Part shown: one piece after another, positions 7,887 to 41,591 of the stretch
Position numbering within the stretch: position 1 is the first letter of the stretch
Layout of the letters: every line of letters starts with the position of its first letter
From: Apostichopus japonicus
Lineage: Eukaryota > Echinodermata > Holothuroidea > Aspidochirotida > Stichopodidae
NCBI RefSeq assembly: GCF_037975245.1
Contig: NC_092561.1
Span: 8,554,001 to 8,618,000, forward strand
DNA length: 64,000 bases
Direction: 5' to 3'
Position numbers and translations under genes: made by a program
The notes under the pieces: generated by a model
Seen by the model: the letters and a program-made list of their open reading frames with translations, nothing else
Database searches by the model: none
What the model was told of the DNA's origin: nothing

Positions 7887-9079
7887 CAGACCACACTGAT
7901 AATAATGAAACCAACAGTCTGCACCTGCAAAACACTTGTTGTTTGGCATGATCATCACTTAAACCACTTCTAACATGCATCTTACTGGTTTTACTAACTT
8001 CCATGCTCTGTCCAGATCTAGGGTAAACAGACTTTCAGGTGACTAACATGCTATCATCAAGGTAAACACTTACCCCAAATCATGTTGATCGTACTGTAGT
8101 TTAGCGGTATCTGTGCAGAAGGAAGTTATCCAATTGGCACTGCTAATCCCATACCTTTATCATTCTTTCTTAGACCATGAACCTGTGAACAGGAGTGGAT
8201 CATCCCGTTTAGTTTTGTGTTTATTATCTCTGGCATACTGTACAATAAATAGTAGGACAAGTTGTCCCAGTCTTGGGAAGGCATCCAAGTTTGGGGGGCC
8301 TCCTCTTTCATGTGGGATGAAAATCTTTTTTCATGGGCACCTCCTTAATCCTTGAGATGGTACCAGAATTGAAGATAAAACATTCAATCTTAACAATTTA
8401 CAGTGCACAGACAATAATTCCAACCAACATGTCTACATCATTGTTGGCACAGTTTTTCCACTTCATTTTTACAACTTTGCCAGAAATATATTAATGTAGG
8501 TTTATTTACAAGATATGCTATGCTGTACTTCTCTTGAATAGCTTGTAAGTTGTAGCTTGGTAGACCAGCATGAAAAACCTAACGTCAAACCTAACTTATA
8601 ATCGTAGCTTAGGCTAACCAAACGTTTTGTATCAGTTCAAAACATTTCCTTACATTACCTTGTAACTTACATCTAATGCGGTCAAAATCTTGCTGCTGTT
8701 TGTGAGCAAAGAGAAGATAAAGTTGTTATCATAAACGATCCCTAGGAATGACAATTTGCTCTGCAAATGACTGTTAGGCTTAGTCGCAGATGTAGGCTTC
8801 TGTGTTCAGTTCATGTTGTCTTCTGTTCATACATTGTTGTTATTGTTTTGAAATAATCAAGGCTAGGCCCGGTAACAGAGGTTTAATTCGAGTTGGCTTA
8901 CGCTCAGCTGTGCTGTACTAAATAATAGAGCACGTTATCAAAGGTTATTAGAGGGAAGAGGAGACACTCGATCTGTATTGTACAGCATTACGGAAACCTT
9001 GATGTCACGTTTTCGGAACAGAGAAATTAGCCCTCACTCAGTATGTAGTTGGCTATGAGGTATATCGTAGGTGCTATAC

Positions 9080-18009: not shown

Positions 18010-18397
18010 TTATTCTTCCTTCTTTTCCTCCTCTGCTTCATCCTCCTTCTGCTCTTCGGATGGTTTCTCTTCCTCTGCCACCTTCTCTTCAGTCTCCTGA
18101 GATGGTTTTGCATCACCGCCACCTGCCTCTTCATCTTTCTTCTCCTCTGGTTTATCTCCATCTTCCTTCTTCTCGTCTGTCTTATCTCCATCTGCACCTT
18201 TCTCCTCCTCTTTCGCACCTTCTTCCTCCTTCTTGTCGCCTTCCTCTTCGGCCGGCTTCGGCTCCGGTTCGGGTTCCGGTTCTTTCGGTTTTATGCTCTC
18301 GAGGGTCTCCCCGACATCTGCCAGCAGGGTGTCATCCAGATGTTCCTGTAGTAAACCCAAGCTGTAGATCCACAGCTGTTTCTGCTGTTCTTCATTT
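18010..18397 (-). CDS. SDR gene, last exon (acidic C-terminal tail)
   Basis: The acceptor is ATCTTTCGTTTTAG and the exon runs to TAA at 18012-18010. It begins NEEQQKQLWIYSLGLLQEH, the usual last helix of the SDR, then from about residue 481 becomes a Glu/Lys/Pro/Asp tail of about 93 residues, very like the exon 4 insert in composition. The repeated composition suggests exon 4 and the tail may share an origin or a function. Confidence 0.9.
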
Positions 18398-21300
18398 CTA
18401 AAACGAAAGATCATGTTTAACAGGGTTAAAGATTGCTCGTAACTTAACAATCTACTAGGATTCCCGCAAGTTACTGGTTCGGGGATCTACGAGCGATGAT
18501 ACTTTATACTTGTCTCCTACCCTCCTCTTTTACCTTACCGGCTAAACTGGTGACAATTTTTGCACTGCGCCCCCCAACTCACCTGAGACTCCGCCCCAAA
18601 CACATCCGAGACTCCCCCCCCCCCCCCCCCCCCCCAACACATCTGAAACTTCGCCCACTCATTCTTCCTTCTGAATACATACCCCTTCAGAACAACCAAC
18701 TGCCACGTTAACAGGTTAAGGAAATGAGGATGAGTGCACAAGAAAACTGGAGATAGGTTCGGGAGGTACATCAGTGGTAGCCAACCAATATGGATCTCAG
18801 GGTAACACCTTCAATCTCAATGTGTTAAAGAATCACACAGCATTTACAACAAAATGCATTTTTGAAAGTTTGGCAGAATGGCAAATTTGGCTTCAGTATA
18901 CAGGACTGCAAGCATCTACTTCATTTATAATTTCATGTGGTCATAAAGAACGTAGAATGGGTATTTCTTTTTTTTCCTTTACAGGGAAGTCTCATGGACC
19001 ACACAGATAACCCTAACACAGATGCTTACAAAACCTTTAGGGTCCCTTGGTTTACAGAAATATGAATTAAAACTTGCATACAGTATCTCTGTAACTTCTG
19101 AATTCCAGCCCTACATTTCTACATTCTACATTTCTCTACTGAAGCAGATTTTTTGTCTGTTTGTAAGGCAATGCCTCCCTAATTCTACATGTAACTTGAA
19201 CACAAAACCTGTTATTATAGAATGACTTTAGAGTACATGATTAACAGTTGTAGACAGTTTTAAAACAAAAACTTATATCACTCCAAGCTGAAAAGTCTTA
19301 CGCTATTTGGGAGATACGAACACTCATCTTCCTTCACATAAAAGACCGAAGGATCCAGTCTAAATAAGGCATCATGGAGCCACTTTGGGTTTCACATTTT
19401 CATGTTTTTATTATAAAATCACCATATTTATTGTTTGTAATGTAGATGGGGTTTTGTGTCAACATTCTACTCGATACAATGAAATAAAAAACAAAGCAAA
19501 AAGTAGAAAGGTTTTCGGATCCCAGCGGCAGTACATGACATCGCATACTACCAAAAAATGACAGTCACCATTCATGACTTTCAAGCTAGCATAATAACTA
19601 CCAAATATAACAAGAACTTTCTTTATCTGTTTTTGGTGGAGTTGTTCCACAAGAAAAAACCTTGATCATATCGAGGATGGTAAGGTTTGTGCCTTCTTTC
19701 ATTGCCAGACACACATCGGCAGCTATAACTTGGCAGAGACGTTCTTTAGAGTGCATAAATGCCGTGCATGATCGTTTAGTAATTCGTAACTATCAAAGGT
19801 ACCACTGAATTAATCATTCGGACAATTTCAGCATGAAGTAAACACTGCAAACAGGTTTCTAGGAAAGTAAGTCCCAGCAGGCCAAACAAGGAGATGAAAC
19901 AACCCCTTTAAAACTCTGCAATGATGTACTGACACTGACACTTTTTGACCTTCGCTTTCTTCATTTTTTATCACTTTTCTTTATGTTTTTAATTTTTGTT
20001 CCTTAGCGATTATTCTATCTCACCGAGCTGTGGCGCTGGGCTGTACGGGCTTGCAGCTGGAGAAGTAGAGTGGACCCTTGCCGTGGAACTGTTCATCCAA
20101 CGCAGCTGACAACGTGGTCGCTGCTCCGTCATCAGAAGTTCTCCCAAATCCTGGAATGAGGTTAAAATAGATGTTTTTTCAAGTTATTTTCAAGATTTGT
20201 ATCTTTCCATCAAGCACAATGGTTTATGGAATGCAGAGGTCAGAAACTCTGAATAATAATAATAATAATTAACAGTTCTTATATAGCGCAACTAACAATA
20301 AAGTCTTGCCGCGCTGTACTTAACCCTGGTCTTTGGTAACTTGTCACACCTACACACCAAAGTGTGCACAATTCAAACAATCTCTCCTGGGGCACCACAG
20401 TTCACCACAGCTATGTGTCCCCTGGGGGACTTCCCATAGGGTGCAGCCACAAACCGACCCAACTATATTTACAAGTCACTTCGCAAGTCCCCATTTATAC
20501 ACCTGGGTGAAGAACTATTCAAACATCTACAAGGCTGATTTTGAAGCAATTTTTTTGTGTCATCTGAGCGAGCACTTGTCCTTTGATTTGGGTACTCGGG
20601 TTCTACGAATGAGTCAATAGTCTGAAAAAGAATCGAGTGCACCCTTAAACAGTGCCAATGGATTGGGTATGTGCGTATATTTTTCATCAAAATATCGTAG
20701 CTAAAAAGGCCACACATTATATTATTGTGAAACAAAATAAACTTCATGAAGAGCATTGCAAAGCTAAATGACTTTTGTTACTAAACTGGGCATTTGCAAA
20801 TTATAGAACTGAAGTTTCCAAAAACTTATTAAATTTAATGAATGTTCTCTTTTGTTGTTGGTAGAGAAACAGTGAAGATTAATTAAGTTGAGAAAAAACT
20901 GACCTTTATGTAATAATGTGGCTGCTTTATACAAGCCAGAGTATCCCTTGGAGAAACCTGTGTCCACTACGCCTGGGTGAACCGAGAACACATCGATTCC
21001 TGTGTCCTTGATTTTGGAATGCAAACTGAATGTGTTCATGATCTATGAAAAACAAGCCCAAAAAAAATGCAGTTTCCATGGCAACTGAAGCTTTCCAAAT
21101 TAAATGGCAAGAATTTTTTTTTTTTTTTATAGTTTCAAAATATATTTCCTGTCTATTTCCAGTTTTTGAACCTACTCAATATTATCCCAAATTTTATACC
21201 AAAATTCTGATAAGAAAATGAAGATATATAGTGTGGAAAGGTGCAGATTTTTAACAACTCTACTACTGAAACAGAAATTTTCCAATTTTCTGCAAACATG

Positions 21301-24300
21301 GCAGTGGGTTACTACCATTCAGTAACTGTATTTTCTTTCACTGTTCTTTAAGTGAATCTCAATTGGGAAAAAGGTGAAGGGTGGAAGGGAGTAGGGGCAG
21401 AGTGGGAAGGGTAGGGTAAATTGGACAGGGGAGAGAGAGGATAGCAAAGATGTGTAAAAGGTAGGGTAGAATGAGGGTGGGGAGAGGGAGGGGTTGACGG
21501 GGCTCGTATTTTTTTCCCAGGACGAAGGTGGGCATCGGCCAATCAAATCCCTGGATTCCAAACATGTGACGCTTTTTCAAAAAACATGTTCTGAATCTTT
21601 TTTCCTAGTTTTGACCCCAGATTATGAACGACAATCCTTCATTTTCATAGAAACTGGATCCATAACCCACTTTCTAAACCCTAACTCTGATTTCAAACGA
21701 ATTTGTAAGTTCCTGAAAAAACCTGAAACCCTTATTCGTCCTAGGAATAAAAATTAGGCTGACGGGGCAGTCAGGTTTGGACAAACATAAAACCCTGTCC
21801 TACCTGGAATAGCTTTGAGTTACCATAAGCCTTGCCTTGGCTGTAACTCTTCTGAGACTGAATGTTGTCAAGGTTAACCCCGTCGCCTCGCTTGTGACCA
21901 GATGAAGAGACGTTAATAATTTTGGAGTTTGGTGCACTGGCCTTGAGTACGGGCAAGAGGTGCAATGTCAACAGGAAGTGAGACAAGTAGTTTATCTGGA
22001 AGGTACTCTCCAGGCCGTCATTGGTCAAAACTAAAAAAGCAAGAAATAACATGTTAAATTTATCAAAATAATACCTCTTGCAAGTTTGATTTTCAAGATG
22101 GAAATACCTCTGGATATAGAGAATCACTTGCTATTTGTGTAAATATCAACTACTACAGGTTTATATGTCACTGAGATTCTTGTGCTTACGACCTTCAAAG
22201 GATGATCTTCTAAGATGCTCCTAGGCCAGGGGTGGGCAACCTTTTTGAATGAATGGGCCAGATATAAGGTGTGAAAAATTGACTGGGCTGCACCTAACCA
22301 ACGACCTGCTGTTGATTTCAAACCTTTGATTTCGAGGACTTTCAAGCAATAGGTGTGTGTACTTAATCTGCATTCACAAAAATATAATGTCAACACAGTA
22401 CAGTTGATAATTAATGATGATAATAGGCCTACCTGAGAGCATCATTAGTGCCGATAAATTCTAAGCAACTAGCTCTTTTTTGTGATGATGTAAAATAGAT
22501 CGATTGTTTTTGTTTTTCCTTGAGACATCTCACAAGACCAAGACACCCCCCACCCTGCTAGATATTTTGCTCCAAACGAATTTTGATTAGCAAGAATTAA
22601 TTTAGGCCTTCCAATTCCATTCCAAAATTGCCAGTGTATAATATTAATCAAATTACATAATTAAATGAAATTTCAGTGTATTCCACCTCTCTTTTTGTCA
22701 CTTTTTGAAGTGAAAACCTGACCGTGGATTGAAGTATGAAATTGTTATCTGAAAAGTTTCCAGATTGCTCTAGACAAGGTAGAGCCAGAGTGCAGTTGTT
22801 GTGGGGAGACCGGTAAGTGAGTAAGTTAAGTAAATATTACAAATTCGATGCAAAACTGTGGCTGAATGCATTCACAATTACTCCCTAGTTGGAATCCTCC
22901 AGGTTCCTGGAAATATTTTTACCTGTCAAAAATCTGTCAATTAATGGTGATGAGTTAAGTTTGACATGGACTGACCTTTTTTATGGGGGGGGGGGCGAGT
23001 GGGGGGTTAGTGAAGAAGGAAATGGGGTTTGTTTCTGTTATTGCTTTTTCTTTTCTCTTGTTTTTTTCATTGGTTTTGAAACTTCAATTGTAACAGGGTT
23101 TTAATTTTTCAGAATGTCAGGGTAAAAAGCCATCCTTCAAATGAAGGGGTCAGGGAGATGCAGGAATGGAAAGGACAATGGGGATGGCTGGACTCATAAT
23201 CCTCTTATTATTCATATCAAGATGAGAAAGTAAAGAGAATTTTTACTAAAAGGGCATCCTCAATCTGCATACATGTGGATAGGATAATTTTTCAATGCGT
23301 TTTTTGACTTAAATTCACTTAGGTCCCTTGGATTCATTTCACAATTCTTTTTTTATTTTGGTCGGCATTTTTAACAATCAATAGAGTATTACTCCACGTA
23401 AGACTGAGATATGATGGATCCCTAAGACATCCTCCTGTGGTATTTGTTTCACCAAATGAGGGTTTAAAGGGTGTGAAGACTCGCGCAAAAAGAAACGTCT
23501 AATGCCGGTAATCTGACCTAGTTTCGAATGAGGTGTAACAGAAGTGTTAGACACCACCATCGATCCCAGAAAATACACACACACAGCTTGCTACCATTGG
23601 TAATTAGGCATTAGCGTACAGTCAGTACATACAGCTGCGGTCAATACCCACAGCACAGAATACAAACGATACAGCGATGGCCTTCTCAGGTCCAGCTAAA
23701 TATAACAATTAAGGTATCACGTTTCATTACTGTCTGCATTTTGGATCGACACGAACAAAATGTCACTTGCAAGCAACAGAAAGTTAACTTTCTCAGATGG
23801 GCGCACGCGGTTTGGGGCGAGTCTTCAGTGCCTTTAATGAAAAGGACAGTTATTATGATTCTAATCAATTCTCAATGTTTCAAGGCCAAATCCTTCATAT
23901 TGGTATATACCCCATGTCAAACGACCGATTGCAAAATTTCACAAGTTTCCAAATTTCGCTTTTTCAGGTGGCCGCACGCGGTTTGGGGCGAGTCTTCAAT
24001 GCCTTTAATGAAAAGGACAGTTATTATTGATTCTAATCAATTCTCATTGTCTCAAGGCCAAATCCTTCATATTGGTATAAACCCCATGTCAAACGATCCA
24101 TTGGAAAATTTGTGTCGTTCCGAATTTCGCTTTATTATTTGCGAGGGAAATTGATGAAAACATCTACCTCATTTATAGCTTTATAGGGACTTTGGTATGA
24201 AAAAAGAAAGAAAAAAAACAGTCATAAAATTTATCAAAGCTTATTCGAAGTAATAAAACTTACCTTTTGCGGGAGCAATTAATCCACCATTGCAGATCAA

Positions 24301-27300
24301 GACATTTAAAGGTAATCCGCTCTCTTTGTACTGTTTGACAAATTCAAGAACAGATTTGAACGATGCCAAGTCTAATGGCATAAACTGGAGCTTGAGTTCT
24401 GGAATTTCTTCTTCTGGTTCGGGCTATTAAAAAAAAATGAAATCGTTCATAAACCCCATAAATTGTAAAATTTTTAGAACAATTAGAGGGTTTTGACAGC
24501 AATATATTTTGGATCAAGGAAAAATACTATAGAGTTGCATATCATTGAAGAAAAAAAAAATTATATAGCATGAGCCAACTCCCCACGTTAACTCCATTGA
24601 TGTTGAACATTGCAGCATATATGAGTAAACTTACTGAACGTTGTGGAACAATCTATAATCGACAAATCAAAAGTGATGGCAGCATAACTTACTATTTGTT
24701 TATTTTTTTCCAAAGAACAATGAACTTCATAAATAGTAACTATTTCAGATGTTTTTATGAATAATAACAGTTGTTTTTCTGATATTTTATACGCCCCTAG
24801 ACTTAGATCTGATAATCCAAAACTTTTGACCGAGTGAATAGCATGGGCACCGACCGCACAAACCAAAAGGCACACAGTCGTATTTTTGTGGCAATACTTG
24901 GTCGCATTTTTCAGCGAAATGTTAGCATTTTTCTGGAAAGATGCATGCCATGAAAGGAGAAGGCAGTCAAGGATGCATATTTTAACAAATCCTGAACCTA
25001 TTAGCTCCTCTGGTCCTAAAATAAGCTCTTACCCTAAATTATTATTCAAACAAAAGCTCTGCTAACTTGCTATATCATCAGGTGATGCTAATTCTAACAT
25101 TTGTCATGAGTTTTCTTTGAAGACTAGGCTAGTCACAGAAGCACAAAATCTCTAAGGAAAGTGCATTTAAGGACTAAAACCCCCCCCCAAAACTCCCTGG
25201 TTTTGGGTATTTACATGCGGGGATACTTACCTGTCTAAACTCTACTATTGCACTTTCTCATATACTATACCTACAGTAACCCTACTAAATGGTATTATTT
25301 TAGCACTACCCTCCTCCCTCATACCTTGACCCTTCTCTGGGTCATAGTCCATCACCCCCTCCTCTTTATGGATCTAACATTCACAAAGTATAGAAGCATA
25401 TCCTTTTGATAATCTTGTCTCATTTGGAAATCCTACTTTTTGGGAGAATGTTTCTCTGGAGTGTGTTTTGGAATTATTGTTTTGGAGAACTCTCTCAATG
25501 CGCTTTCTGAGCACTGCGTAACCATCCTTTGACCTTTTCACATGTTTTTTCAATTGTAGGCTAGGGTTCATGGGAAGGTGCAATAGTAGAGTGTGGACAG
25601 GTAAGAGAGGAGCACAGTAAATGTAGATCAGTAAATATTCCTAAACTTACAGAACTTTCTTGAGGTACCTACAGAAATGCCTTATTAAGGTGTGAGTAGA
25701 ATTGGAAGAAAAAGAACATTGACCCCCAGGGGTGAAAGGGGATCCAGGTTGAAGATAGTATCTACTGGTATAAGCTGGTGGATCGGGATGTAGATGGATA
25801 GGAGACACAATAGAAATGGAGGAGTTAATTCGGGGGTAGGCACCATCTGCTACGAAAAGTGTCATCTAGGCACTATGCTAAGTTTCAAGGTTTTTGAAAC
25901 TAGCGGAACTTCTACGGTATCAAGTATATGTTGCTAAGAAAACTGGCAATACATCTTGAAATTAATTATGCATACACATGCATGGTTGGCAGGAGGTATT
26001 CAGTGGAAAAACCCATCTAGCTAACTTTAGAAACCAGAAATTGGGAGAAGGGGTCATATTCCATCAACTAAGGGTCCAATTTTTGTGACATTTATGTTTC
26101 CTGTATAGCACACAGAATAACTGGGTTAGGTTAATGTTTGCTTTTGGACAAACAAACAGTATTTTCTGAAGGCAAGAAAGTGATGAGATGGGGAAGAGAA
26201 AGTTTATACTATTGTGCTCGAACAATAACTTGTTACACATTTTAATGAAAGCAACTAGAACTCTATTTAATAATGCAAAATACTTATTGATCCTGGAGTG
26301 TCAATTTGGATAACTTTTGTAACGCTCTTTATCGTTAATGTGAAATAATATAAAAGACTTATTGATCCTGGAGTGTAATTTTGATAACTTTTGTAACATT
26401 TTTAACGTTCATTATTATCTTAATCTCATAAACTTTTAAATGTCTTAACCTGTATTTTTGATGTTCTGTATATTGTTATATTTTCATCCTATTTATAAAT
26501 TTCTCTGTAAATTTATACTGGAATAAAGAAATGAAATGTCCATACCTCTGCCTCTGCAGGGGCATCTCCATCCTCCTTGGCTCCTCCCTCAGCAGCAGCA
26601 GCAGAGGCAGCAGCTGGCTCCTCCTTTTCTCCTCCTTCTGCTGGTTTCTCCTCCTCCTTCTCCTCTGCTGGCTTATCTTCTCCTTCATCAGCCTTCTTCT
26701 CTTCTTCCTCTGCAGGTTTCTCTGTTTCTTCTGCTGCTGCTGGTTTTTCCTCTTCTTCGGCTGGCTTCTCTCCATCTTCCTTGGGTTTCTCTTCCTCGGT
26801 TTTATCGCCAGTCTCTTCTGCCTTCTCTGCGCCGTCTTCTTTCTTCTCTTCTGCGGCGGCCTGTAAAATTTTGAATTTTTTTTGAAATCTTGAAATGTTA
26901 ATATTGCAACTTACGTCAGATATTTGCATCAAATGTACAGAAGATGGATTCAAGTCAATATGTTGTACTATTTATATCACAAAAATGTATGATGACACCC
27001 CCCCACAAAAAAAAATTCTGAACTTCCCCTCTCTCATTCCTCCTGCCCTTGATCAAGAAATAAAGAACAAAATAAAATGAATTCTATTTCAAAAATTTCA
27101 TGCAGTTTCTCTGTCGAATTATACCAAGTATAAAAATAAGGAATGCCACTATACTGCCCAAAACTACATTGGTTTGGGATTTACGAGCAGTGCTAAGACG
27201 TTCCAGTGTGTAGGTAGTTAGGTACATGGGAAAGTGCACATGTGGAGTGGGAGACAGGTAAGAGAGGAGCGAAGTAAATAGGCCAGACTGATTTGTACTG

Positions 27301-30300
27301 CTTGGCAGTAAGACACCGTGTCAAAATCAAAATGCTGAATGACTCTGCAACCATGCTGGGCAGGACATCATTTCTTCTGTGCTCTGTAGTTTCACACAAT
27401 CGAACTGCTGATCTGTTAAGATAATCTCTATGTTTGTTTTCGATATATCGAGTCAGCCTTGTTTGCGGGGGATTTTGCAGCTGCTGTATCTTTTGACAAC
27501 ATTGCCTCCAGTTACCGATTATGTCTTATCGTTCACAAATAACACTATATTACATATTATCAAATTACATTAAAGGCAAACTTGAGCACAGAGCCACTGT
27601 CTCGCTCGGTATACTGTGAAAGAAATTCATACCGCTCATAAAATGGACCAAATAATCTGCAGTTCAGCTGAATCGGGTATCATGACGACTTTTCATCCAA
27701 AGTTGCATTTGATTAATATGCAAATGAGGCTGTGCCAAGGTATCAGCCAGTCGCGACAATTTTTTTTCCTTTTAGAACTTATAAATGCTGGTACTATGCC
27801 TAATCTCTTTATGCAATGCTTTCATGTTATATGCATCTAGGCGATCCTATTGACAGTATAAGAACATTTCCCAACCTTAATCTTACAGATATACGGTATA
27901 CAGGATATTTTTCATAACTGCTCATACTGTCAGTAAAAAAAGGTTTGCAACATGGCATGACCAAATCATAAAGAATTTGTCTCAACTGGGTGCTACAATA
28001 TTGTCCTACTATATATGTCTATGCATTGATCAGTCTTGAAAAGTAATTTTAGAATTTCTCCTGACACTTCTTCATATACTACTGTAATTCCTTGGTGGGA
28101 GACGTTACCATGGAAACAGAACCAAGTGATAAGATAGACCTTTGGACAACATAAATCTAACTACGAACTGTGTATAAATGGCTAAAAAATCTACACATTA
28201 CTCTATATATAACGGGTATGCTTATGCATGTCTAGAGCGAGATTTACTCTGCAGAGTCAATAAAATGTATCAGCTTTCTCGTAGCGCAATATCTTCACGA
28301 ACATTACTCGTTAGGTGAACTTTAGACTTATTGCCAAGAAACTTCACTTGGCGACTGATCAATTTGTCTACGCTAAAGCTCCATTTGAAGTCTCTACAAT
28401 AATTAAGGCAGGAATCAAACAGAAATCAGCGCTTGAGACGAACCGCAATTCGTGGAGAAAGTTTGCACCGACGAATTAAAAATATCTGCTGGTACTCATA
28501 ATCACATTTGTCAACATTAAACCACATTTTGATATCTGTATCTTCATAATTTATCCAGTGTTGCATGGCAATGGTGGTCAAAATTTGCTGTAAAACTCCA
28601 AACTTATCTATATTGTGCAGTTTTCTGCACAGCAACCATAGTATTTTATTAACAGACAAAACTGAGAGCTTTAAAAAATTGACGTACAAAGTTTTGAATG
28701 ATGCTATAAATTATTCCCTAGAGCTTAATGCTTTGGGAGTTTTATGTTAATCCACCAAATGCATGTGACATCAATTCCCAACTATGTTTTATTGAATGTG
28801 ATACTACCTGCAACTTTTGTCACAAAACAACAGACCTGGATATTGTGTATGATCAGCTGGATGTCTTGGTTAACTTGACTTGCAAATATAAGAAAATAAC
28901 AACAAGAGAGTACTGTATTATCACTTGATTATCCTTACAAATCATCCACTTGTACAATATACAACCAAAGTTGCAAAGTAACAAAATAGAGCTCGTGCCA
29001 GACAATCCCCCCCCCCCCAAGCTACTGTATAAAAGGACAAAGGAGATACGTTTTAAATATATGCTTGCGCGTAATATGAAAAGGTCAAAGGTTATACAGT
29101 ACCTTGGCTGCTGCCTCTTCTGTTTTAGCTAGTGCAGCTTGTTTTGCTTCTTCCTTTTGTTTCCTAGCTTCTTCCTTCTTCTTCTCCTGCTCCTCCTTGG
29201 CGGCCGCTGCCTCCTTCTGCTGCTTCTCCCTTTCAGCGGCGTCCTTCGCCGCTTTCCTCTTGGCTCTTACTTCCTGTCGATTTTCCTCTTGCATCTGGTC
29301 GATTGCCTGCATCGAAAGAAGAAACGAAGTCAGAGCAAGACTAAACAATAATAAAGTCCTAAATCGTAGTCGAGTAATTGTCTGACCGAAACTGTGTTAT
29401 TTTTTCTTTTTTGCATATTTCACTAATTCAGTATTTTACTACCTGTAGCTGCACCTCTCAAATCAATATGTAGTTATTCTTGTTCCCCTCACTGGCAAAC
29501 TGTCGTTATATGTTAAACCTCTTTACCTTATCTTCTCCCATATTTCCTTCATGCACCCTTCCTACAACCTCCCATTCCATCTTACAGTACCAGACATATA
29601 TACAGTAGCTCCTCCCATCACACCCCACATACAACAAGATGGCTACTTAGATGTATTTTAGATCCTCCTGCAAGCAGGAACTCGCGAAGAAGCCATCATT
29701 GGCTCATCAACGCCGCAAGCTGACCGAAGTCAGTCTCTTACATTCATATTTAACGTCCATGATTATGAATTGTCAACAACTCTGTAACTGGACGACATAC
29801 ATTAATCTTGGAGTGACTAAAACTAGGGACCTTATGACACCGGTGTTAACCACCGAGCTAACATTCCTTATAGAAAGTAATGACATGATAGCTATCTCAG
29901 TCATAGACATATATGAGACCTGGAACACTTGAAGACAGGTGGGGATAGGGGAGGGGAACTGGGGGGGAGGGACACAAAGTGTAAATGAGATGAATGTGTA
30001 GCCATGAGGCCAGGATTAAATGCCAAAATGTATTTCACAACCTTATGTGAATGGTATGACCCAAACAGGGGACAACTTGTACAAAGAGTGGCAACCATTT
30101 CTACAACTTGTCTATTGTCCTGTCCGTATTTCGTAGGACGTGTACACAGTACTTATTTAGTAGAAGAGAACTGAAATTTACACACATTACAGTATATGCT
30201 GTATGTGTACTAGTAAGTAAGCCCTGCAGTATATACAGTATGTAAGAGCACAATATGTACAGTATTACAGTAGCAGCCTGGGCTACATTTAATGAAGGTC

Positions 30301-33300: not shown

Positions 33301-36300
33301 CTTGAAACGTGATTCAAAATTTGTAATATCTTGTTGAATACCAAATAGATGCTACACGAGGATGTGGGCTTGACCGTAAGATGCAGAAAAATTCTAGCAC
33401 GTTTTTTAAGCAATCAATTCCAGCTAACAAAATTTTCCTTCATGAAACGGTACACTGGTCATTGGAGATGACTGAATAAGGTCTAAACAAACCCAGCGAT
33501 CATGTTTAACCAAAATGACAGCAACAGTTAATTGTGAAGAACAACTCTATGAAACAAATCTTGCTATATAATCTTATGAATTGAGAACTTTGCATTTGTG
33601 TCAATGTGTGATGTCATAGCCTTTTAGTGCCACTAGGCAAAAAAAGGTAGATACCTGTAGATGACATATTTCTGTCTTTCTCTTCATTTTCTTTCATTTT
33701 ATAGTAGTCACAATACACCATTGTTAGTACAAGCCTTCTTATGTTGTAAAACGGCATAATTTGATACTTCACAGATACCCAGGGCTATGTAACTTGAACT
33801 TTTGAGGTTCTGATTGAGTTCTATTACTCTTGCTGGAAAAAAAAAAAACTGGCTCGATTTTTTTCTTTATTGATAACTCACCTTTTTGGCTTTCTCTTCT
33901 GACCGGCAGGCCATTATCACTCTTCCTCCAAGTTGGGCAATTTTTTTGGAGGTATGGTACCCAATTCCTGGGGGAAAATTGATTCAAAAACACAAAAATT
34001 TATATTTAAACAAATCTTGCTCAATCTGGCTGATAGGAGCCCTACAAACAATATAGTTGAAAGAGCTGTGAAACTATATTAAACATAACAGGCAGAAATA
34101 CTCTCCAACAGGTTTCTTGATGTGCTCTTTCAAAATCTCAAAAGAATGGGGGGGGTGGTGGAATGGGGGGTGGAATGGGGGAGGGGAAGGAGAAGGATGG
34201 GAAGTGCGTGGGAAGTGAGGGAAGGGAAATAGGGGATGGGGATGGGAAGTAGGGGAGGTGAGGAAGAATGTATACCAATTTGTGTATACCCAATATACTG
34301 TAGACTATATATACTGTATCGCTCATACTGTATTAAAAATATACTGGTCTCCTAATTTTTTTTATAATTTCTATGTGATACCCACAACTTTACTGCAAAA
34401 GCAACGAAACTCAATTGCGTATTCTCTGTTGTACTTCAGTTTGCACTTTTCCACAGAAACCGAACCTACCAAATTGGCACCATGTTTTAGCACTGCATGT
34501 GCCCCGTTAACCCCACAGAGCTACTGCAGTGCTAAAACATTCCAATGTGCAGTTAGGTAGATGGGAAAGTGCAGATGTGGAGTGAGAGATAGGTAAGAGA
34601 GGAACAAAGTATTAAATCTCCTAGTTTGTCACTTTCTTTCTTCCTTCCTTCGGAGTCAACCATTTAAAAGTTAACCCATGACTGTAAACTGTGTTCTTCA
34701 GACATTTTTTGGATTTGAGAAGATCCACTTTTTATACAAAAGGGACCGTTTTTCTAATTTTGTCAAATTTCTCTCTCTTTTTCTTTACAACTAGAGTACT
34801 GTTTGTCATTTGCTACACACCGACAGCAAAATAATAACAGAACTGAAATCATGGGCTGAACTGAAGCACTTGCAATATAAGGGGGTGGATTGACAGGATA
34901 AATTATTGAACATCACCAAAGGTACATCATCTATAGGTACGTACAATACAGGTTATACTGTATGACCGATACAGGCAAACAACTTTAGAGTGCATAATTG
35001 AATCAAATATATTCGATTGAGAAGCACAGCTTGAAAGAACTTGTTTTCTGGGTGTTGTCACAACATCAACAAATACCTCCACTAGTTCAAACAAGTTTGT
35101 GACAAACACCTACAGTAAATGATTTTTATCTCTTTTCCTGTGGCCCTTAGACTCAAATCTGAAGATCTCTTAATCTGTGTAGTTGTCAAATACAAGCAAA
35201 TGCCAATGTTGTATGCACAACACACAAACACGGACAGACAAATTATGAAAGGTCACTAAAGATGCGACGGGGAACCAAGTTTCAAAAAGAGAATTTTAGG
35301 TAGACGCAAACTTTTTCCCATAGCTGATATGTGCTTTACACAACCTGCATCCCCCTCTCCCCCCTCCCCCCATCCTAAAAATAGACCTACAGTAATTTTT
35401 ACATGATTTTTACAGGATTTACTGTAGGAGTTTTGTTATAAAGACTTGTAGCATGCGTCAAATATTTACCGCTATTGCATTTATGTGTCACTGCCAATGA
35501 ACTTTATAGCCAAGTATCTTTAACAGTACTTTCTATACTTCCTGTGTCATAGTAGGTACTACATGTTTCCGTGTTGTAGAGTGATGTATATATACTACTA
35601 TACTTACATCTACTGTTATGCTGCACAGTTCATTGCACAATTAAATATGCTCGACTTCTTTCTAGTTTCATTTAAAATTTTACCTTTGATTATGAGTGCA
35701 ATAGTGCAAATATTTCATGAGTTGATAAAGGGAATGTTCCATTCAACGCGGCGCAGGAAGAGGTGATGGACGATGACCTGAAGGAGGGTCAAGGTGGGGT
35801 GGGGAAGGGGGTGAGGGGCGTAGTGCTAAAATAATACCATTTATTAGGGCTAGGTATACAGTATGAGAAGGTGCAACAGGTAAGAGAGGATCACAGTAAA
35901 TACACAGGGTGGGCAACCTTTTTGATTTGGGGTCCAAATTTAAGAAGTCTGGTACCCTGCTGGGCCAGAACATCATTAAAACTGGTTTCCAATGAGCAAC
36001 CAACCAACCAACCCTTCCCACCTCCCCCCCCCCTCCCTCCCACATATTAACTGGGAAGTTTCACTTATCAGATTTATGAATGGAAACAAAAATGAAATAC
36101 AAATGTCAGAAACGCAAATTATGAAAGTTAGTGCGCCTTCTGATTGTTGGTAACTGTATTTTGACATAAAATTGCCATTAACAACTCGTAAAACACTTAC
36201 GAGTATTCAAAACCTAACCTGAAAACCAGGAAGTGGAAAAAGGGCTCCAAAACACAATGAATGAATTTTAATTTTTTTTTTTTGGTATCCTTTTTTGTGT

Positions 36301-39300
36301 GCAAATTCCATAAGGTCTGACCAGTCAAGTGGTTCCGTGACGGGTTTGGCCCACAGGCCACAGGTCGCCCGCCCTGCATTACAACAAGAGGAACTATACT
36401 GTAGGCTGTGATCAAGACGTGGGTCGGTGAGAGTGCAGTGCTAAATGCACTATCAATTTTGCATTTTCAGGTTAAGTATAAATTGGAAAGTGTATCTTCT
36501 GTGTAGGAAGAGGTTTAAATGTTAAGGTTATGAAGTTAATATAGTACTGTGTTGTGCACTGCAATGTACAGACTACCTGTACCAAATAAGAACCTTGAAA
36601 CTATAATGGTTTCTCCATATAGTTCTACACATGTATGGCTGACCAACTGCAATTTTTCAACCACCTTCCCTCCTTTTTTGTTTATTTCTTTTCACTCTGA
36701 ATACACATGTCATAAATAGCTTAATCCATACAGTATAGCTAGCTAAATAGCTTAATCCCTGCTGTATAGCTAGCTAAATGGCTTGATCCCTGTTGTAGCT
36801 AGCTAACTGATTATACTTCAGAAAAGATAGGTCATGGTCGAATTTCTGACTAGGCCATGGCCACAGTAAGTACGGTGAGTGTTTTGTCTTTCTTATAACC
36901 ACCAGCTAAAAACAAACATATACAGTGCAGCAGCCCCATAAAATTTTATTTTGTCTCAAGTTTGTTTGTGTTACATGGATCTTGTCAATATTTCCTTAAA
37001 CAAGTAAACATGTACAGTATCAGTTAACTGGTCTCATTATCCCCACCGTTTGACCTGTAAAGAATTTGCAGATTCACAACACCCATGTGACATATTAAAC
37101 CATTTATTAAAATCTGTTTAGAATCTTTTGAAAATTAATCCTCCAGACGTAATTTTAAAAGCTGACCAACATCAGGACCTGAAATTCAGGCTGTTACTGG
37201 ATAAATGGCAGCGGAATTTGCCTTTACCAGCGAGGGCACCAGACGGCGTTTTGCCAGTATTTATTAAGAATAAGAACACATGGGGCTAAAGTCGGTTGCA
37301 AACTCAAGTCAATTGGCGTGATTTTCTGTACCTAATGCAGAATGTTCTGAATGTTACCTAATGCAGAAATCCCAAAGGATGTATAGAAGGTAAAAATCCA
37401 ATGTATTCCGGGCAATTTCCGTAAGATTTTGTATCCACTACGAAAACGCATGTGTAAACACTTTGGATGGTAGAATGAGAAGGAAGGGCAACGACCGGAG
37501 GAGCCGGTCACTGAGGGTGCACAGTGTTAAAAGATTACCAGGGCATACTAGACACGGTAGAATGAGGTGCCAAGGTTGTGAGGAGACACGTAAGCGAGGA
37601 GCGAAGTAAATTTAGCCAGTTACCCTTTTCAGGCATCATAGGCACTAGATATTTAAGGGCTTTTTTGCATCGATTTGTTATTTTTTTTTTTTTAAGTTAT
37701 ATTTGTTTTATTGTAATCTTTAATGAGGGTAGTCCTGCTCAGTGCAGAAGCACTACTTTCCAGAGGAGCCCTGGGCCACTAATTCCAGATAATAAGATTA
37801 AAGTCTTACCAGGTTTTTACCACCTCTCTTCTATCATGACACAGGGAGTCCAGAGAGTGCTAATACAGTACGTTGGTTGCGAGGAGACAGGTAAGCAAGT
37901 ATGTAAACATAACATCCCAAAATAATGCAGATCGGAAAGTACAGTAGGTCCAAAGAATGAAGATGAAAGTCAGCCGTTTTGAATATTTGGAATATGATTA
38001 CAATCGTTAAAATTTGCAACTTTAAAAGTTAACTATTAACAATCATACTTAACCTTGACAAAAAGGTTGGAATGTGCAATTAGTTTGATAAGTTGAAATT
38101 GTTAATTGTTAATTTCTAGTAACATGGTGGATGAGTGTGACACACTGTGGGTTCAATATGTACTGAAGGCTTGTAACTATCAAAGTTTCTGTGTCAAATA
38201 AATATCTGTAATCCTCCCCATATTTAGCTTTTGCTATGTTAAGAGTATGACACATCACCTAAGATATATTTTACATATTTTGTCAAACATTTGATGAAAC
38301 TGGAGGTAATTTTCAGTAGAAATGTCTTTGCTAATGATGATATAATCTTTTGAAGTTTGAACTGCAATGAAATGACCTCCATTTTATTCCGATATTAGAC
38401 AGCTATAATGCCTTGTATACATTAACTAAATGTTAGCTCAGACTGATCTATACATGTGTACACAACTTGTACATAAACCAGATATATTTACAACATACTG
38501 TACTGTAGGTCTACCACTGTAAATTATACCAGACCTATGTAAATTATTCATTATTTCAACTCAAATGTCACTGATTAATTATTTACAACTCTGACATTTC
38601 AGCAAAAAAGTTTTAAAGATAATTTAAGTAAAGTATTTAAGCCATTGCAGAATTTACTGTACATAGTAGGTCATAGTACTATACTCATTTACAACATACA
38701 CATTATGATTCGGCATATAAGACTGGTTGTGTACATAATGACACACAGGGCTGGTACTATGTATATGAATTAACTCATTTCATTGCACAACGTATTTACA
38801 CATTATATTATCTACATACGTTTTAACATGTATGTACAGTGCCATCTGCTCCACATTTCTGTGGTTTTATCAAACCTTTGTCTGAGTCACAATCTGGATT
38901 TAGATTCTTTACATTTCTCCTTTCATCAGAGTTTCCAATGATCATCAATAAATATTGCATACTTGCTCATCAAACATTTACGAATATGTAGCATTCCATT
39001 CCTCCACTCATGGTGCACTTAACCGAATAAAGTGGTACATTATGATGCTGAACTGAGCCCAACATTACAATTTTCGATGCATCAGTCCTTTGCCATGTAT
39101 GCAACTTGGCTATTAATGATTCATTATCGTCTCAAGGCAACTCAACTTAAACACTGTTGTGTTAAACCTGTTCGCTGTGACTTGCAATGAAAATTAAACG
39201 TACTTCAGTAAATTCTCAACAAGTAATTAAAAATTATCAGCGGATACTGTGATGATTAAACTGATACAGTATGTAAAATGCAGGCATACTGTATAGCATG

Positions 39301-41591
39301 GAGACCCTTTAAAATACAACATTATGTAACAAACCCAACAAGACTGTACTAATACAGGAAAAAATAACTGTGACTAGCAAGCAATGAAAATTACACATAC
39401 TGTATTTCAATACTTTTAACACTTAATTTAAAATTATCAGCAGATACTTGGATGATTTAACTGATATGTAAAATGCAGGCACACTGTAAAGCATGGAGAC
39501 CCTTTAAAATACAATATTATGTTGCAAACCCAACTAAATACTAATTGATACTTTTGGTGGAGCAGCTAAGAGGGGGGGGGGAGGAGGGAGAGACATAGAT
39601 GAGGTAAAATGAGGGGAGGGGGCCATGTGAGGATCGGAGTAGTCAGTACCCTGGATGTCACAGTACGGCTTGCTCTGTTGCACAGACTTTTACATGTACA
39701 TACATCGTACAAGAAAAGGTTCTAAAATGATGCAAAATGTGTCGAACAAAACCATTACCTCCGAAACACAACATTTTTTTATTTTCATTTGGGAGGATTG
39801 CTGTTTCACACAGGTTATTGATGACAGCTGGATTTAAACGAGACACAAACCAAACATCCTTCTTCAGCTTATCCTGTAAATCTTTGAAACCTTTCTCTTT
39901 GCTTTTCTCTTTGCTTTTTTCTTATATATATTCAAGGTGTTGACATTGGAACCAATGCCATTATTGCCAGTATTAGCTGGAATGTTATACAGAGGTTCAA
40001 TATTTTATATTGAGCATTTGCAAAACTCATCTCCAGTATATACTGAAAATAGACATTGTAATAAATAGAGAAAAAAAACAAAAAACTTGAAGGACATTGG
40101 AGCTTGGTGATGTCACATTTAGATTTGAACAACTGTCTCCAGCCTTGTGTGTGAAGTACTGTAAGAAACATTAAATCTGTTATATTACCCAAATGGAATA
40201 CAAATTTTCGTAGCTGTTTTGGGAAATTGTTTAAATGACAGTTACAGAACAGTAACTCTATCACATAGACCAATCATAATGGTTGAAAACATACCAAGCC
40301 TTCTCTTTTGAAATGTTGCAGTAGTTGCTAGACTGTAGACAGGGGTCTGAAGTTTCAAAGTATCAAGACTAGGCTTTCTCACATGACCTTTACTTCATTC
40401 TACCCCCCCCCACCCCCTGGTCATCAATTGGTAACTTGTGATGTAACCACAGTCAAGTGTGCAAAATTCAAAATGCTCGGTTGCTCCTGGGGCACTACAG
40501 TTCACCACCACACATGTCCACTGGAGGACTTCCCAGAGGCTGCATCCAAACACCAGCCCGTGGAACTATATTTACAAGTTACCTCGCAGGTCCCAATCAA
40601 TACACATTTATACAGAACATGGGTAATGACAGGCAATGGACACTAAACATTGTGTGCCTCCTAAGCACACAATGTAATTATATGGCCAGGGCTCGAACCT
40701 GCTATCCTCAGATCACAAGTCCATTCCCCATTAGCCATTTGACCACAGAGCTCTTTTGGTGGTCTAACTTTTTCATTTCCTGGAAACAGGAAGTATATAC
40801 TTGCTAACATTCCAGATCTATGATTGTATGTAAGGACATTAATGTGCTGGTAATGTACACCTTCTATACTACCTAGCATTTTTCAGCATATATAACTGCA
40901 ATGATAAACTCCATTGCACTGCTTCCAGAGTTGTAGTACAGCAGTTACTGACCATGTAGCTTGGGTTCACCAAGTTTGTCTTGCATAAAGGATGACTTTG
41001 TGCCCAGATTCAGAAAGCCAGAAGTGCAAATGTATGCAATTGTATTTTAATATTTACAGGCCTAGAAATTCATAATTTTAAGCCACTCGCTAAAAAATGC
41101 CATCTGTGCATAAAAATTATCTACTAGATATATCAGATTCCCCCTTGCAGTTTCTTTCAGTTGGTAAAAATGCAACATTAAATTTGCTTTGGCAGAAGGA
41201 AAAAGTTATACTGGGAAACGGCCGAATCCACCAGGCATTTAGCCATTAAATAACCTGCAGTTTGAGGCCTAGTAGTTGGTTTATAATACCTGAAGGGTCT
41301 CTTAGAACTATCTTTGTAAAGAATTAATAAAGGTCTTGAATTTAGATGAAGTCAGACTTTTTAAGAGCATGGTAGGACATCGGGGGGGGGGGGCAGTAGT
41401 TTCCTTGGGCTGGGTACTCTGATACCAAGCTGACAAATGCTAAATAATGATGACCTTGGCCACATCATCTGCAATAAAGAAAGCAATAAAAAATCATGGT
41501 TTGTAATTAAGTTACCTGTGTTTGCCCCTGTCACAATAAATGTCCTCTCCTCGGGGATCTCATCTTTTTGTACACTCAACTTAGCTCCCAT
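18010..41591 (-). CDS. N-myristoylated-type SDR oxidoreductase with acidic, disordered insert (whole gene)
   Basis: Nine minus-strand exons give a complete 573-residue protein. The core is a short-chain dehydrogenase of the retinol-dehydrogenase 11-14/DHRSX type: TGANTGIG cofactor loop (21-28), ACRS after strand 2 (NADP(H)-type Arg), LDLAS (244-248), INVSSSGH (319-326) and catalytic Y349-x3-K353, then HPGVV. Expected reaction: NADP(H)-dependent oxidation/reduction of a lipid-like alcohol or carbonyl; the substrate is not known. Oddities: (i) MGAKLS start, a consensus for N-myristoylation, so probably anchored on a cytosolic membrane face; (ii) residues 55-227, from two whole phase-0 exons, are a Lys/Glu/Ala coiled coil and then an acidic disordered stretch, inserted between strand 2 and strand 3 of the fold; (iii) the usual NNAG/CNAG is CNGG (271-274); (iv) residues 481-573 are a second Glu/Lys/Pro tail. 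Without the insert the protein is 400 residues; relatives are ~310-330. Confidence 0.92.
18398..20023. other. SDR intron 8
   Basis: No exon signal is seen. The intron includes a long C tract near 18616-18635. Confidence 0.5.
20024..20150 (-). CDS. SDR gene, exon 8
   Basis: This is a 127-bp exon with acceptor CTCATTCCAG and donor GCTCG/GTGAGA. It encodes a segment with GPLYFSSCKPVQPS, matching the 'GKYFxDCK' substrate-side region of retinol dehydrogenases. Confidence 0.9.
20262..20515 (-). mobile_element. Copy of SINE family B body with an 'agcgc' 3' domain
   Basis: The body matches 40428-40620 (ctcctggggcaccacagttcacc, gggggacttccca, ctatatttacaagt). An AAT microsatellite and the segment ttatatagcgcaa...gccgcgctgta precede it. 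A similar 'aaagcgc...aagcgctgta' segment occurs at 9095-9150. Shared tail domains of this kind are common in marine SINEs. Confidence 0.6.
20904..21042 (-). CDS. SDR gene, exon 7 (HPGVV region)
   Basis: This is a 139-bp exon with acceptor TTTTTCATAG and donor ATAAAG/GTCAGT. It encodes IDVFSVHPGVVDTGFSKG, the conserved segment after the active-site helix that contacts the cofactor nicotinamide in this family. Confidence 0.92.
21804..22030 (-). CDS. SDR gene, exon 6 (catalytic Ser and YxxxK)
   Basis: This is a 227-bp exon with acceptor GCTTTTTTAG and donor TTCCAG/GTAGGA. It carries the FQINYLSHFLLT helix, the Ser motif INVSSSGH and catalytic AYGNSK. All residues expected for SDR catalysis (Asn, Ser, Tyr, Lys) are present. 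Confidence 0.93.
22227..22540 (-). mobile_element. Second copy of the CAGGGGTGGGCAAC hAT-like MITE, one end decayed
   Basis: It starts CAGGGGTGGGCAACCTTTTTG and carries the interior of the 3147-3446 element in reverse orientation, including the shared stretch near 'aggtgtgtgtacttaatctg'. The distal TIR is not recognisable, so the right boundary is approximate. It lies in an SDR intron. Confidence 0.7.
23464..23837 (-). mobile_element. piggyBac-like MITE, second copy (inverted)
   Basis: It starts TTAAAGGGTGTGAAGACTCG and ends GGCGAGTCTTCAGTGCCTTTAA. The interior is the reverse complement of 7523-7886 (for example the shared 'ttctgttacacctcattcgaaac'). It lies in the SDR intron between exons 6 and 5. 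Its right end is the start of a tandem duplication. Confidence 0.8.
23797..24140. repeat. Two-copy tandem duplication of a MITE end plus flank
   Basis: Two ~172-bp units (about 23797-23968 and 23969-24140) each hold the MITE end (gcacgcggtttggggcgagt) followed by 'aaaggacagttattat', 'ccaaatccttcatattggta' and 'ccccatgtcaaacga'. The duplication therefore arose after the MITE inserted, or the MITE belongs to a larger element. Confidence 0.8.
24264..24423 (-). CDS. SDR gene, exon 5 (strands 3-4, CNGG motif)
   Basis: This is a 160-bp exon from acceptor TTTTTAATAG to donor AAAAG/GTAAGT. It starts PEPEEEIPELKLQF, moving from acidic linker into strand 3, then MPLDLASFKSV and NVLICNGG. The last motif corresponds to NNAG of classical SDRs, with Gly in place of Ala. 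Confidence 0.92.
24424..26545. other. SDR intron 4
   Basis: It contains a diverged tandem pair at ~26275-26330 and 26345-26405 ('tacttattgatcctggagtg...ataacttttgtaac') and one copy of the gacaggtaagagaggag repeat at ~25597. No further exon is recognised. Confidence 0.5.
26546..26860 (-). CDS. SDR gene, exon 4 (acidic disordered insert)
   Basis: This is a 315-bp exon (105 codons, phase 0 at both ends), acceptor AAAATTTTACAG, donor GCAGAG/GTATGG. The translation is Glu/Lys/Ala/Pro/Gly/Asp only, with recurrent 'EEKPAEE'-like steps. The composition recalls BASP1 and MARCKS, but low-complexity similarity is not proof of homology. It could be a cassette exon. Confidence 0.85.
26861..29102. other. 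SDR intron 3
   Basis: One copy of the gacaggtaagagaggag repeat lies at ~27251. Otherwise it is AT-rich sequence without recognised genes. Confidence 0.5.
29103..29306 (-). CDS. SDR gene, exon 3 (charged coiled-coil insert)
   Basis: This is a 204-bp exon (68 codons, phase 0 at both ends), acceptor TTCGATGCAG, donor GCCAAG/GTACTG. It begins AIDQMQEENRQEV, which continues the normal SDR helix, and then becomes almost pure Lys/Glu/Ala/Gln with heptad-like spacing, predicting a long single helix or coiled coil. Skipping it keeps the frame. Confidence 0.85.
29651..29872 (-). mobile_element. tRNA-derived SINE, family A, copy 3
   Basis: A nearly full copy, with a small deletion in the tRNA-like head between the B-box region and the A box (gttaaccaccgagctaac). 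It lies in the SDR intron between exons 2 and 3. Confidence 0.8.
31726..31949 (-). mobile_element. tRNA-derived SINE, family A, copy 4 (most complete)
   Basis: On the minus strand it begins at 31947 with GGAGTGTTAGCTCAGTGG, an acceptor stem plus A box. It continues through a B box (GAGTTCGAGTCAC) to a matching CACTCC acceptor strand near 31882, so the tRNA head is almost foldable. An unrelated body of ~155 bp follows, ending at tgtattttagatcc. This is the structure of a Pol III-transcribed SINE with a tRNA head. Confidence 0.88.
32670..33058 (+). mobile_element. hAT-like MITE (CAGTGGCGGAGC family), copy 1
   Basis: It begins CAGTGGCGGAGCTAGGGG and ends GACGCTCCGCCAG. It is flanked by a perfect 8-bp direct repeat tctgggag (32662-32669 and 33059-33066). 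The interior has no ORF. A second copy sits at 59160-59506 in a phnX intron. Confidence 0.88.
33882..33967 (-). CDS. SDR gene, exon 2 (cofactor loop and helix B)
   Basis: This is an 86-bp exon with acceptor TTCCCCCAG and donor AAAAAG/GTGAGT. It completes TGANTGIG and encodes the helix plus strand 2 ending IMACRSEEKAKK. It ends in phase 0. Confidence 0.92.
35902..36376. mobile_element. Possible third relative of the CAGGGGTGGGCAAC MITE
   Basis: The sequence starts with cagggtgggcaacctttttg and, about 470 bp later, has an inverted-looking end ggtcgcccgccctg. I could not find a matching 8-bp target duplication, so it may be a composite or an older copy. Confidence 0.4.
36713..36803. repeat. 31-bp tandem repeat, three copies
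   Basis: Three units of about 31 bp follow the pattern taaatagcttaatcc...gtatagctagc, with the third two bases shorter. The tagctagc palindrome ends each unit. Confidence 0.85.
39175..39548. repeat. ~190-bp tandem duplication
   Basis: Two diverged units (about 39175-39362 and 39365-39548) share 'gcaatgaaaatta', 'aaattatcagc', 'atgtaaaatgcaggca' and 'agcatggagaccctttaaaa'. Confidence 0.8.
40420..40752 (-). mobile_element. tRNA-derived SINE, family B
   Basis: On the minus strand the segment from 40752 begins GAGCTCTGTGGTCAAATGGC and contains a textbook B box GGTTCGAGCCC about 50 bp later, so the head is tRNA-derived. The body (gctcctggggcac...cagttcaccac...gaggacttcccag) recurs at 20330-20515. 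Confidence 0.75.
41516..41591 (-). CDS. SDR gene, first coding exon
   Basis: It encodes MGAKLSVQKDEIPEERTFIV and then TGANT, with donor CACAG/GTAACT in phase 1. The start is fixed by an ATG followed by the myristoylation-like G2...S6 motif and by the first Rossmann strand beginning at residue 17. Just upstream, TTCTCCTTTGCAG (ending ~41627) is a good acceptor, so a non-coding 5' exon is likely. Confidence 0.9.

What the first reader, a model, noticed from the sequence alone, without database searches (positions are those of the whole stretch)
18010..41591. SDR enzyme with a 173-residue acidic/coiled-coil insert inside its Rossmann fold and a matching acidic tail
Seen: exons 3 (29306-29103) and 4 (26860-26546) are both phase 0-0, join perfectly to the flanking SDR exons, and place Lys/Glu/Ala sequence between strand 2 (IMACRS) and strand 3 (KLQFMPLDLAS). 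The last exon adds a tail of near-identical composition. Established: retinol-dehydrogenase-type SDRs are about 310-330 residues and have only a short helix at this position. Inference: exons 3 and 4 may be an acquired, perhaps alternatively spliced cassette giving the enzyme a scaffold or membrane-skeleton role. I know of no described SDR with this architecture.
Basis: partly seen in the sequence, partly recalled or inferred. Interest (0 to 1): 0.85.

Follow-up and report, generated by a model that had tools for sequence, protein, structure and literature searches.

The report
Dehydrogenase with grown acidic loop
An otherwise ordinary sea-cucumber-type metabolic enzyme has a long charged arm growing out of one of its loops and a matching acidic tail that its close relatives in the same genome lack; it also carries a signal for a lipid anchor, so it may be an enzyme held at a membrane behind an acidic brush.

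Summary
Nine GT-AG exons on the minus strand (41591-18010) give a 573-residue short-chain dehydrogenase (SDR) with about 170 charged residues between helix alphaC and strand betaC and a 92-residue acidic tail. Three paralogs on the same contig share the exon phases and show that exon 3 is not an acquired cassette: it is the native alphaC exon (17-21 residues in the paralogs, same AIxxM start), grown to 68. Exon 4 (105 residues, phase 0-0) was not found in the paralogs, and the two paralogs whose last exon was found have no acidic tail. Exon 3 is predicted as one charged helix, not a coiled coil; exon 4 as disordered. All four genes begin MGxxxS, the N-myristoylation consensus. Best reading: a lipid-anchored SDR whose alphaC helix became a charged boom carrying an acidic brush. 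The architecture is well supported and gain in this gene is likely; use of exon 4 in mRNA, myristoylation, membrane role and conservation in other species are untested. New variant of a known kind.

The parts
41516..41591 (-). exon 1: MGAKLS... (N-myristoylation-type start), first strand and first part of TGxxxGIG
   Evidence: same 76-nt exon in three paralogs, all MGxxxS
33882..33967 (-). exon 2: GIGYHTSKKIAQLGGRVIMACRSEEKAKK, second strand and start of helix alphaC
   Evidence: 86 nt in all four genes
29103..29306 (-). exon 3: native alphaC exon (AIDQMQEEN...) grown to 68 aa rich in A, E, K, Q and R; predicted continuous helix
   Evidence: paralog exons 63, 51, 51 nt; helix 2-67, mean pLDDT 92.3, folded alone without alignment
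26546..26860 (-). exon 4: 105-aa acidic exon, phase 0-0, not found in paralogs, predicted disordered
   Evidence: mean pLDDT 58.3, no secondary structure
24264..24423 (-). exon 5: PEPEEEIPELKLQFMPLDLAS..., strand betaC and ICNGG (NNAG position)
21804..22030 (-). exon 6: catalytic Asn (INYLSH), Ser (NVSSSGH) and Tyr-xxx-Lys (AYGNSK) positions
20904..21042 (-). exon 7: SDR part with HPG motif
20024..20150 (-). exon 8: SDR C-terminal part
18010..18397 (-). exon 9: end of the SDR domain (to about residue 481), 92-residue acidic tail and stop
   Evidence: paralogs B and C stop near this point

Best explanation
It is a retinol-dehydrogenase-like SDR belonging to a set of four related genes on one contig. 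Shown by sequence: the four share an N-terminal MGxxxS start, an exon plan and the SDR motifs; this member has a grown alphaC exon, an extra acidic exon and an acidic tail. Inferred: the N-terminus is myristoylated and holds the enzyme at a membrane face. Helix alphaC runs on as a charged single alpha-helix whose first turns (RQEVRAKRKAAK, net +5; no 12-residue stretch of the protein is more basic) can touch acidic lipids or a partner. The acidic disordered loop (exon 4) and the acidic tail form a negatively charged brush that spaces, solubilises or tethers the enzyme away from the active site. The reaction is probably ordinary SDR chemistry on a small lipophilic alcohol, aldehyde or ketone.
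For: SDR domain: Pfam adh_short E 3.1e-26 in two stretches, adh_short_C2 E 6.9e-17. With the insert left out, the core matches PDB SDRs across the insertion point, and none of the five alignments shown has extra residues there (6l1h E 2.9e-25, 3rd5 E 2.8e-24). TGANTGIG and the N, S, Y and K positions are present. Paralogs A, B and C share exon phases; their exon 3 is 63, 51 and 51 nt against 204 nt here, and no exon 4 was found. B (331 aa) and C (343 aa, counting the stop) end about where the tail begins. In three more distant SDR genes of the genome (D, E, F) the alphaC and betaC matches lie 39, 39 and 45 nt apart, with no room for an insert. These and the PDB relatives favour gain here. N-termini MGAKLS, MGAKPS, MGGKPS, MGGSVS fit MGXXXS/T, the consensus given for MARCKS in PMC6478813 (passages). 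F has a hydrophobic N-terminus instead (by eye). An in-frame TGA lies just upstream of the ATG, which has A at -3 (read). Exon 3 is predicted as one helix, with 14 opposite-charge i,i+4 pairs against 9.1 in shuffles, P 0.034; exon 4 is predicted disordered. Among 28 introns the donors of exons 3 and 4 and the acceptor of exon 3 score mid-range, the acceptor of exon 4 8th lowest.
Against: No transcript, peptide or other-species sequence was available, so exon 4 could be skipped or unused. Myristoylation is a motif match only. A structure predictor run without an alignment may draw charged low-complexity sequence as helix too readily, and the i,i+4 excess is modest. The spliced protein was not folded. 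CNGG departs from NNAG (paralogs CNAG). The window gene lies outside A, B and C in a five-sequence tree with support of only 67, so loss in A, B and C is not excluded by the tree. E/K-rich loops and tails can accrete neutrally.
Confidence: 0.55

Rival explanations
1. Neutral accretion: the alphaC-betaC loop and the C-terminus tolerate soluble additions, and low-complexity E/K/A/P coding sequence grew there by slippage and exonisation without a new function.
For: Internal imperfect repeats in exon 4 (periods 3, 6, 21, 27, 72 nt) and the tail (6, 21, 30 nt), all multiples of three. No other match to the insert or tail in the genome at this sensitivity, with low-complexity limits. The sequence just after alphaC also varies among the paralogs.
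Against: Loop and tail gained like-composed sequence (exon 4 and tail match at DNA level, 72% over 100 nt, low-complexity filter off) while the core stayed SDR-like. Synonymous codons are mixed (GAA 16, GAG 21; GCA 11, GCT 7, GCC 6 in exon 4), so it is not fresh slippage. Neither point excludes neutral growth.
Confidence: 0.25
2. Exon 4 is an alternative cassette: isoforms with and without the acidic loop exist, both with the extended alphaC helix and the tail.
For: Exon 4 is phase 0-0, so inclusion and skipping are both in frame; its acceptor is 8th lowest of 28.
Against: No RNA data; the splice scores rest on 28 introns only and are not unusual.
Confidence: 0.15
3. Gene-model error: exon 4, or the 3' part of exon 3, is not coding.
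For: Four of five other frames of exon 4 are also open; the repeat-copy test was inconclusive.
Against: The compositional optimum coincides with the splice sites; T is nearly confined to codon position 3; the composition is like that of the tail, which lies in the terminal exon.
Confidence: 0.05

Closest known systems
Paralogs A, B and C on contig C1 (around 8242881-8244403, 8261007-8262806, 2942891-2944327)
   Same: MGxxxS start, exon phases, 48.5-54.4% identity to the window gene
   Different: Short alphaC exon, no exon 4 found; B and C have no acidic tail (the last exon of A was not found)
Retinol dehydrogenases of the RDH11-14 kind (name and traits recalled)
   Same: SDR core and motifs; F, which I take for a gene of this kind in the same genome, is 37.0% identical over 297 aligned residues
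   Different: No hydrophobic N-terminal segment; MGxxxS start; 152-156 extra residues after alphaC; 92-residue acidic tail
MARCKS and BASP1 (myristoylated acidic membrane-skeleton proteins)
   Same: MGxxxS start, acidic and disordered sequence, a basic cluster (PMC6478813, passages; the BASP1 start is recalled)
   Different: Those have no enzyme domain (recalled); no homology was tested or shown here
Single alpha-helix regions (Drebrin, myosins)
   Same: Long, low-complexity charged helix with i,i+4 opposite charges (PMC12203971, passages)
   Different: Here it would prolong a helix of a Rossmann fold and lead into a disordered acidic loop; not measured
Protochlorophyllide oxidoreductase
   Same: Best PDB sequence match of the core (6l1h)
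   Different: No matching insert at this place in the alignments shown

Membership tests
Short-chain dehydrogenase/reductase (classical) | TGxxxGxG cofactor motif | tested here: met
   TGANTGIG
Short-chain dehydrogenase/reductase (classical) | Asn-Ser-Tyr-Lys catalytic residues | tested here: met
   INYLSH, NVSSSGH, AYGNSK by alignment to the paralogs and F
Short-chain dehydrogenase/reductase (classical) | NNAG structural motif | tested here: not met
   CNGG here, CNAG in A, B and C, NNAG in F; one varied position, while the family profile match stands
Short-chain dehydrogenase/reductase (classical) | adh_short profile above the curated cut-off | tested here: met
   92.5 bits against 26.6
Retinol dehydrogenase 11-14 type | Hydrophobic N-terminal membrane segment (recalled as usual for this type) | tested here: not met
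   Only 16 mostly polar residues precede the first strand; F has a hydrophobic segment (by eye)
Retinol dehydrogenase 11-14 type | Retinol/retinal activity | not testable with these tools
   needs an assay
N-myristoylated proteins | MGxxxS/T at the start | tested here: met
   MGAKLS; 4 of 4 genes MGxxxS; consensus from PMC6478813 (passages)
N-myristoylated proteins | Myristate on Gly2 | not testable with these tools
   needs mass spectrometry or labelling
Single alpha-helix (SAH) | Continuous charged monomeric helix with i,i+4 opposite charges and few hydrophobic residues | tested here: inconclusive
   Helix 2-67 predicted; 14 pairs against 9.1, P 0.034; 4 of 68 hydrophobic; monomeric helix not measured
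MARCKS/BASP1 group | No globular enzyme domain (recalled) | tested here: not met
   An SDR domain is present
MARCKS/BASP1 group | Basic effector domain that binds acidic lipid and calmodulin | tested here: inconclusive
   Basic cluster 64-75, net +5; binding not testable here

The most novel reading that the evidence does not exclude
An enzyme in which a native Rossmann helix has been prolonged into a single-alpha-helix boom that starts with a basic, lipid-touching segment and carries an acidic disordered cloud; with myristate and the acidic tail this makes a membrane-apposed, electrostatically switched dehydrogenase, a MARCKS-like device built out of an enzyme's own loop.
Probability: 0.2. 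Interest if true: 0.65.

Novelty: new variant of a known kind. Interest (0 to 1): 0.42.

Why it matters
With the paralogs as a likely before-state, it shows how a core enzyme exon can grow outward into a charged helix and gain an acidic neighbour exon without breaking phase or catalytic motifs. If the lipid anchor and brush are real, it would be a dehydrogenase with membrane-skeleton-like appendages, and the four genes would form a natural with-and-without set for testing what such appendages do.

Tried and rejected
Acquired two-exon cassette (exons 3 and 4): rejected, exon 3 is the native alphaC exon. Canonical coiled coil: not supported on hydrophobic content. Origin of exon 4 from another gene: no second match in the genome to the insert by protein (2 matches, both the window's own exons; 150 of 170 candidates scored), to exon 4 by DNA (1 match, its own place) or to the last exon (1 match, its own place); low-complexity searches can miss, so this is weak. 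Purifying selection from internal repeats: inconclusive (pooled mismatches at codon positions 1, 2, 3: 1, 5, 4). PDB relatives of exons 3 and 4: none at E up to 1. Described precedent: searches of the held open-access library gave 1 paper for SDR, N-myristoylated and retinol dehydrogenase, the same paper for four of five terms on myristoylation, anchor and echinoderm, 0 for SDR, retinol dehydrogenase, glutamic acid-rich and insertion and 0 for myristoylated, SDR family, retinol dehydrogenase and disordered; the passages of that paper that I saw do not describe such an enzyme. A sea-cucumber paper and an echinoderm review on retinoids (PMC6995554; PMC8834484; passages only) treat SDR7/dhrs7 genes, and the passages do not mention an insert. 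The Holothuria glaberrima genome preprint (PMC13228809) has no word beginning with 'retinol' in its main text. A 'putative retinol dehydrogenase 12' that is abundant in the hydrovascular fluid of a sea cucumber (PMC12631484, passages) cannot be tied to this gene. Rfam and tRNA scans of the window: nothing.

Dropped rows: genes D and E (fetched, matched) were used only for the spacing between alphaC and betaC and were left out of the alignment and tree, because I made no full models of them; 5 of the 7 genes looked at are in the tree, A without its last exon.

Full report
What was checked. The window is G000:C1:8554001-8618000, from an assembly of 671,581,487 bases in 35 contigs. That is close to the Apostichopus japonicus assembly (671.6 Mb, 34 scaffolds; PMC10344927, passages), so the organism is probably that sea cucumber; this is inferred from size alone. 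The gene was rebuilt by splice sites on the minus strand: nine exons, all GT-AG, phases consistent, 573 residues. The coordinates of the finding are right.

The enzyme. Pfam finds adh_short at 92.5 bits in two stretches, adh_short_C2 at 62.3 bits, and KR below its cut-off. With insert and tail left out, the core matches 187 distinct PDB sequences at E up to 0.001 (best 60 shown), led by protochlorophyllide oxidoreductases, then 3rd5; the five alignments shown run across the insertion point. The cofactor motif and the catalytic N, S, Y and K positions are present; NNAG reads CNGG. So an active enzyme is likely, by inference.

Paralogs as a likely before-state. A search of the genome with most of the core after the insert gave 22 matches, five of them in the window gene itself; a search with part of paralog B also gave 22. 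The close ones belong to three genes on the same contig, for which regions of 17.5, 18 and 18 kb were fetched. All three have a 76-nt exon 1, an 86-nt exon 2, then a phase 0-0 exon of 63, 51 and 51 nt: AIERMIRETQEEHSGEKTEKQ, AIHRMKQETQEDFKGSK, AIEKMKKEIQEEFDQKQ. The window's exon 3 starts AIDQMQEENRQE and runs to 68 residues. It is therefore the native exon of helix alphaC, longer at its 3' side. The introns between exon 3 and the next SDR exon are 606, 709 and 239 nt in the paralogs, and a scan of phase 0-0 candidates of 30-600 nt with more than half E, K, D and A found no acidic exon there; in B it found three overlapping candidates of 16-19 residues before exon 3, which look like chance. 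B and C end (331 residues, and 343 letters with the stop sign) about where the window's acidic tail begins; the last exon of A was not found in the stretch fetched. Identity of the window gene to A, B and C is 52.9, 54.4 and 48.5%, and to F 37.0%. A five-sequence tree puts the window gene outside A, B and C with support 67, so a loss in A, B and C is possible on the tree. But in the more distant genes D, E and F the alphaC and betaC matches are 39, 39 and 45 nt apart, and the PDB relatives shown have no insert, which favours gain.

Is exon 4 coding? For: the best E/K/D/A/P-scoring stretch equals the exon to the base; 17 of 18 T are at codon position 3, and synonymous codons are mixed; its composition is like that of the tail, which lies in the terminal exon. 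Its donor ranks mid-range and its acceptor 8th lowest of 28. Against: four of five other frames are open too, and mismatches between its internal repeats do not favour third positions. No transcript was available. My estimate that it is used in at least some transcripts is about 0.9.

Shape. Folded alone, exon 3 gives one helix from residue 2 to 67 (mean pLDDT 92.3); exon 4 gives no structure (mean pLDDT 58.3). Exon 3 has 14 opposite-charge i,i+4 pairs against a shuffled mean of 9.1 (P 0.034) and 4 hydrophobic residues of 68: closer to a single alpha-helix than to a coiled coil. Exon 4 also shows an excess (19 against 13.0, P 0.022) though it is predicted disordered, and the tail shows none (14 against 16.2, P 0.83), so this measure alone is weak. 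Residues 64-75 have net charge +5, and no 12-residue stretch is more basic; residues 76-122 are neutral. Exon 4 is -28, the tail -25, the core +1 and the whole protein -51. In a Rossmann fold the end of alphaC and the start of betaC lie on the edge of the sheet away from the cofactor, on the same side as the start of the first strand (established topology, recalled). The insert and the N-terminus would thus leave the fold on one face.

Anchor. The four genes start MGxxxS. The ATG of the window gene has an in-frame TGA shortly upstream and A at -3 (read). MGXXXS/T is the consensus named for MARCKS in PMC6478813 (passages). F, which I take to be RDH-like, has a hydrophobic N-terminus instead (by eye). 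This suggests a lipid anchor in place of a membrane helix; it is a motif argument only. D and E were not examined for their starts.

Judgement. The strange architecture is in the genome, and was probably gained on this gene, partly by growth of a native exon and partly by an added exon. Its use at a membrane is a reasonable, untested reading. Neutral growth remains a serious rival. The held open-access library gave no described SDR of this kind under the searches listed, which does not show that none is in print.

Noticed in passing
window 869-1690 (-): C2H2 zinc-finger open frame (Pfam zf-H2C2_2, E 1.1e-16).
   Followed up: partly
window 23788-24111: Tandem repeat of a 172-nt unit, 1.9 copies, in the intron after exon 5; by eye a related sequence lies in the second intron of paralog C (L009 about 8580-8960), so perhaps a dispersed element.
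   Followed up: no
window about 31945-31730 and 29870-29655 (-): Two similar stretches with tRNA-like box motifs and a shared 3' part (read by eye), perhaps a tRNA-derived SINE; ARAGORN reports no tRNA.
   Followed up: no
window 55290-55688 (+): Open frame of 132 aa with a match to bHLH_PER below its cut-off (21.8 bits against 27, E 1.6e-4).
   Followed up: no
L013:5000-5407 (-): A 408-nt GAT microsatellite that reads as poly-Asp.
   Followed up: no
L005 and L006 (paralog A, C1:8236501-8254000): No last exon of paralog A was found, and its exon 7 (100 nt) is shorter than in B and C (146 and 145 nt): a decaying copy, or exons that the scan missed or that lie beyond the stretch.
   Followed up: no
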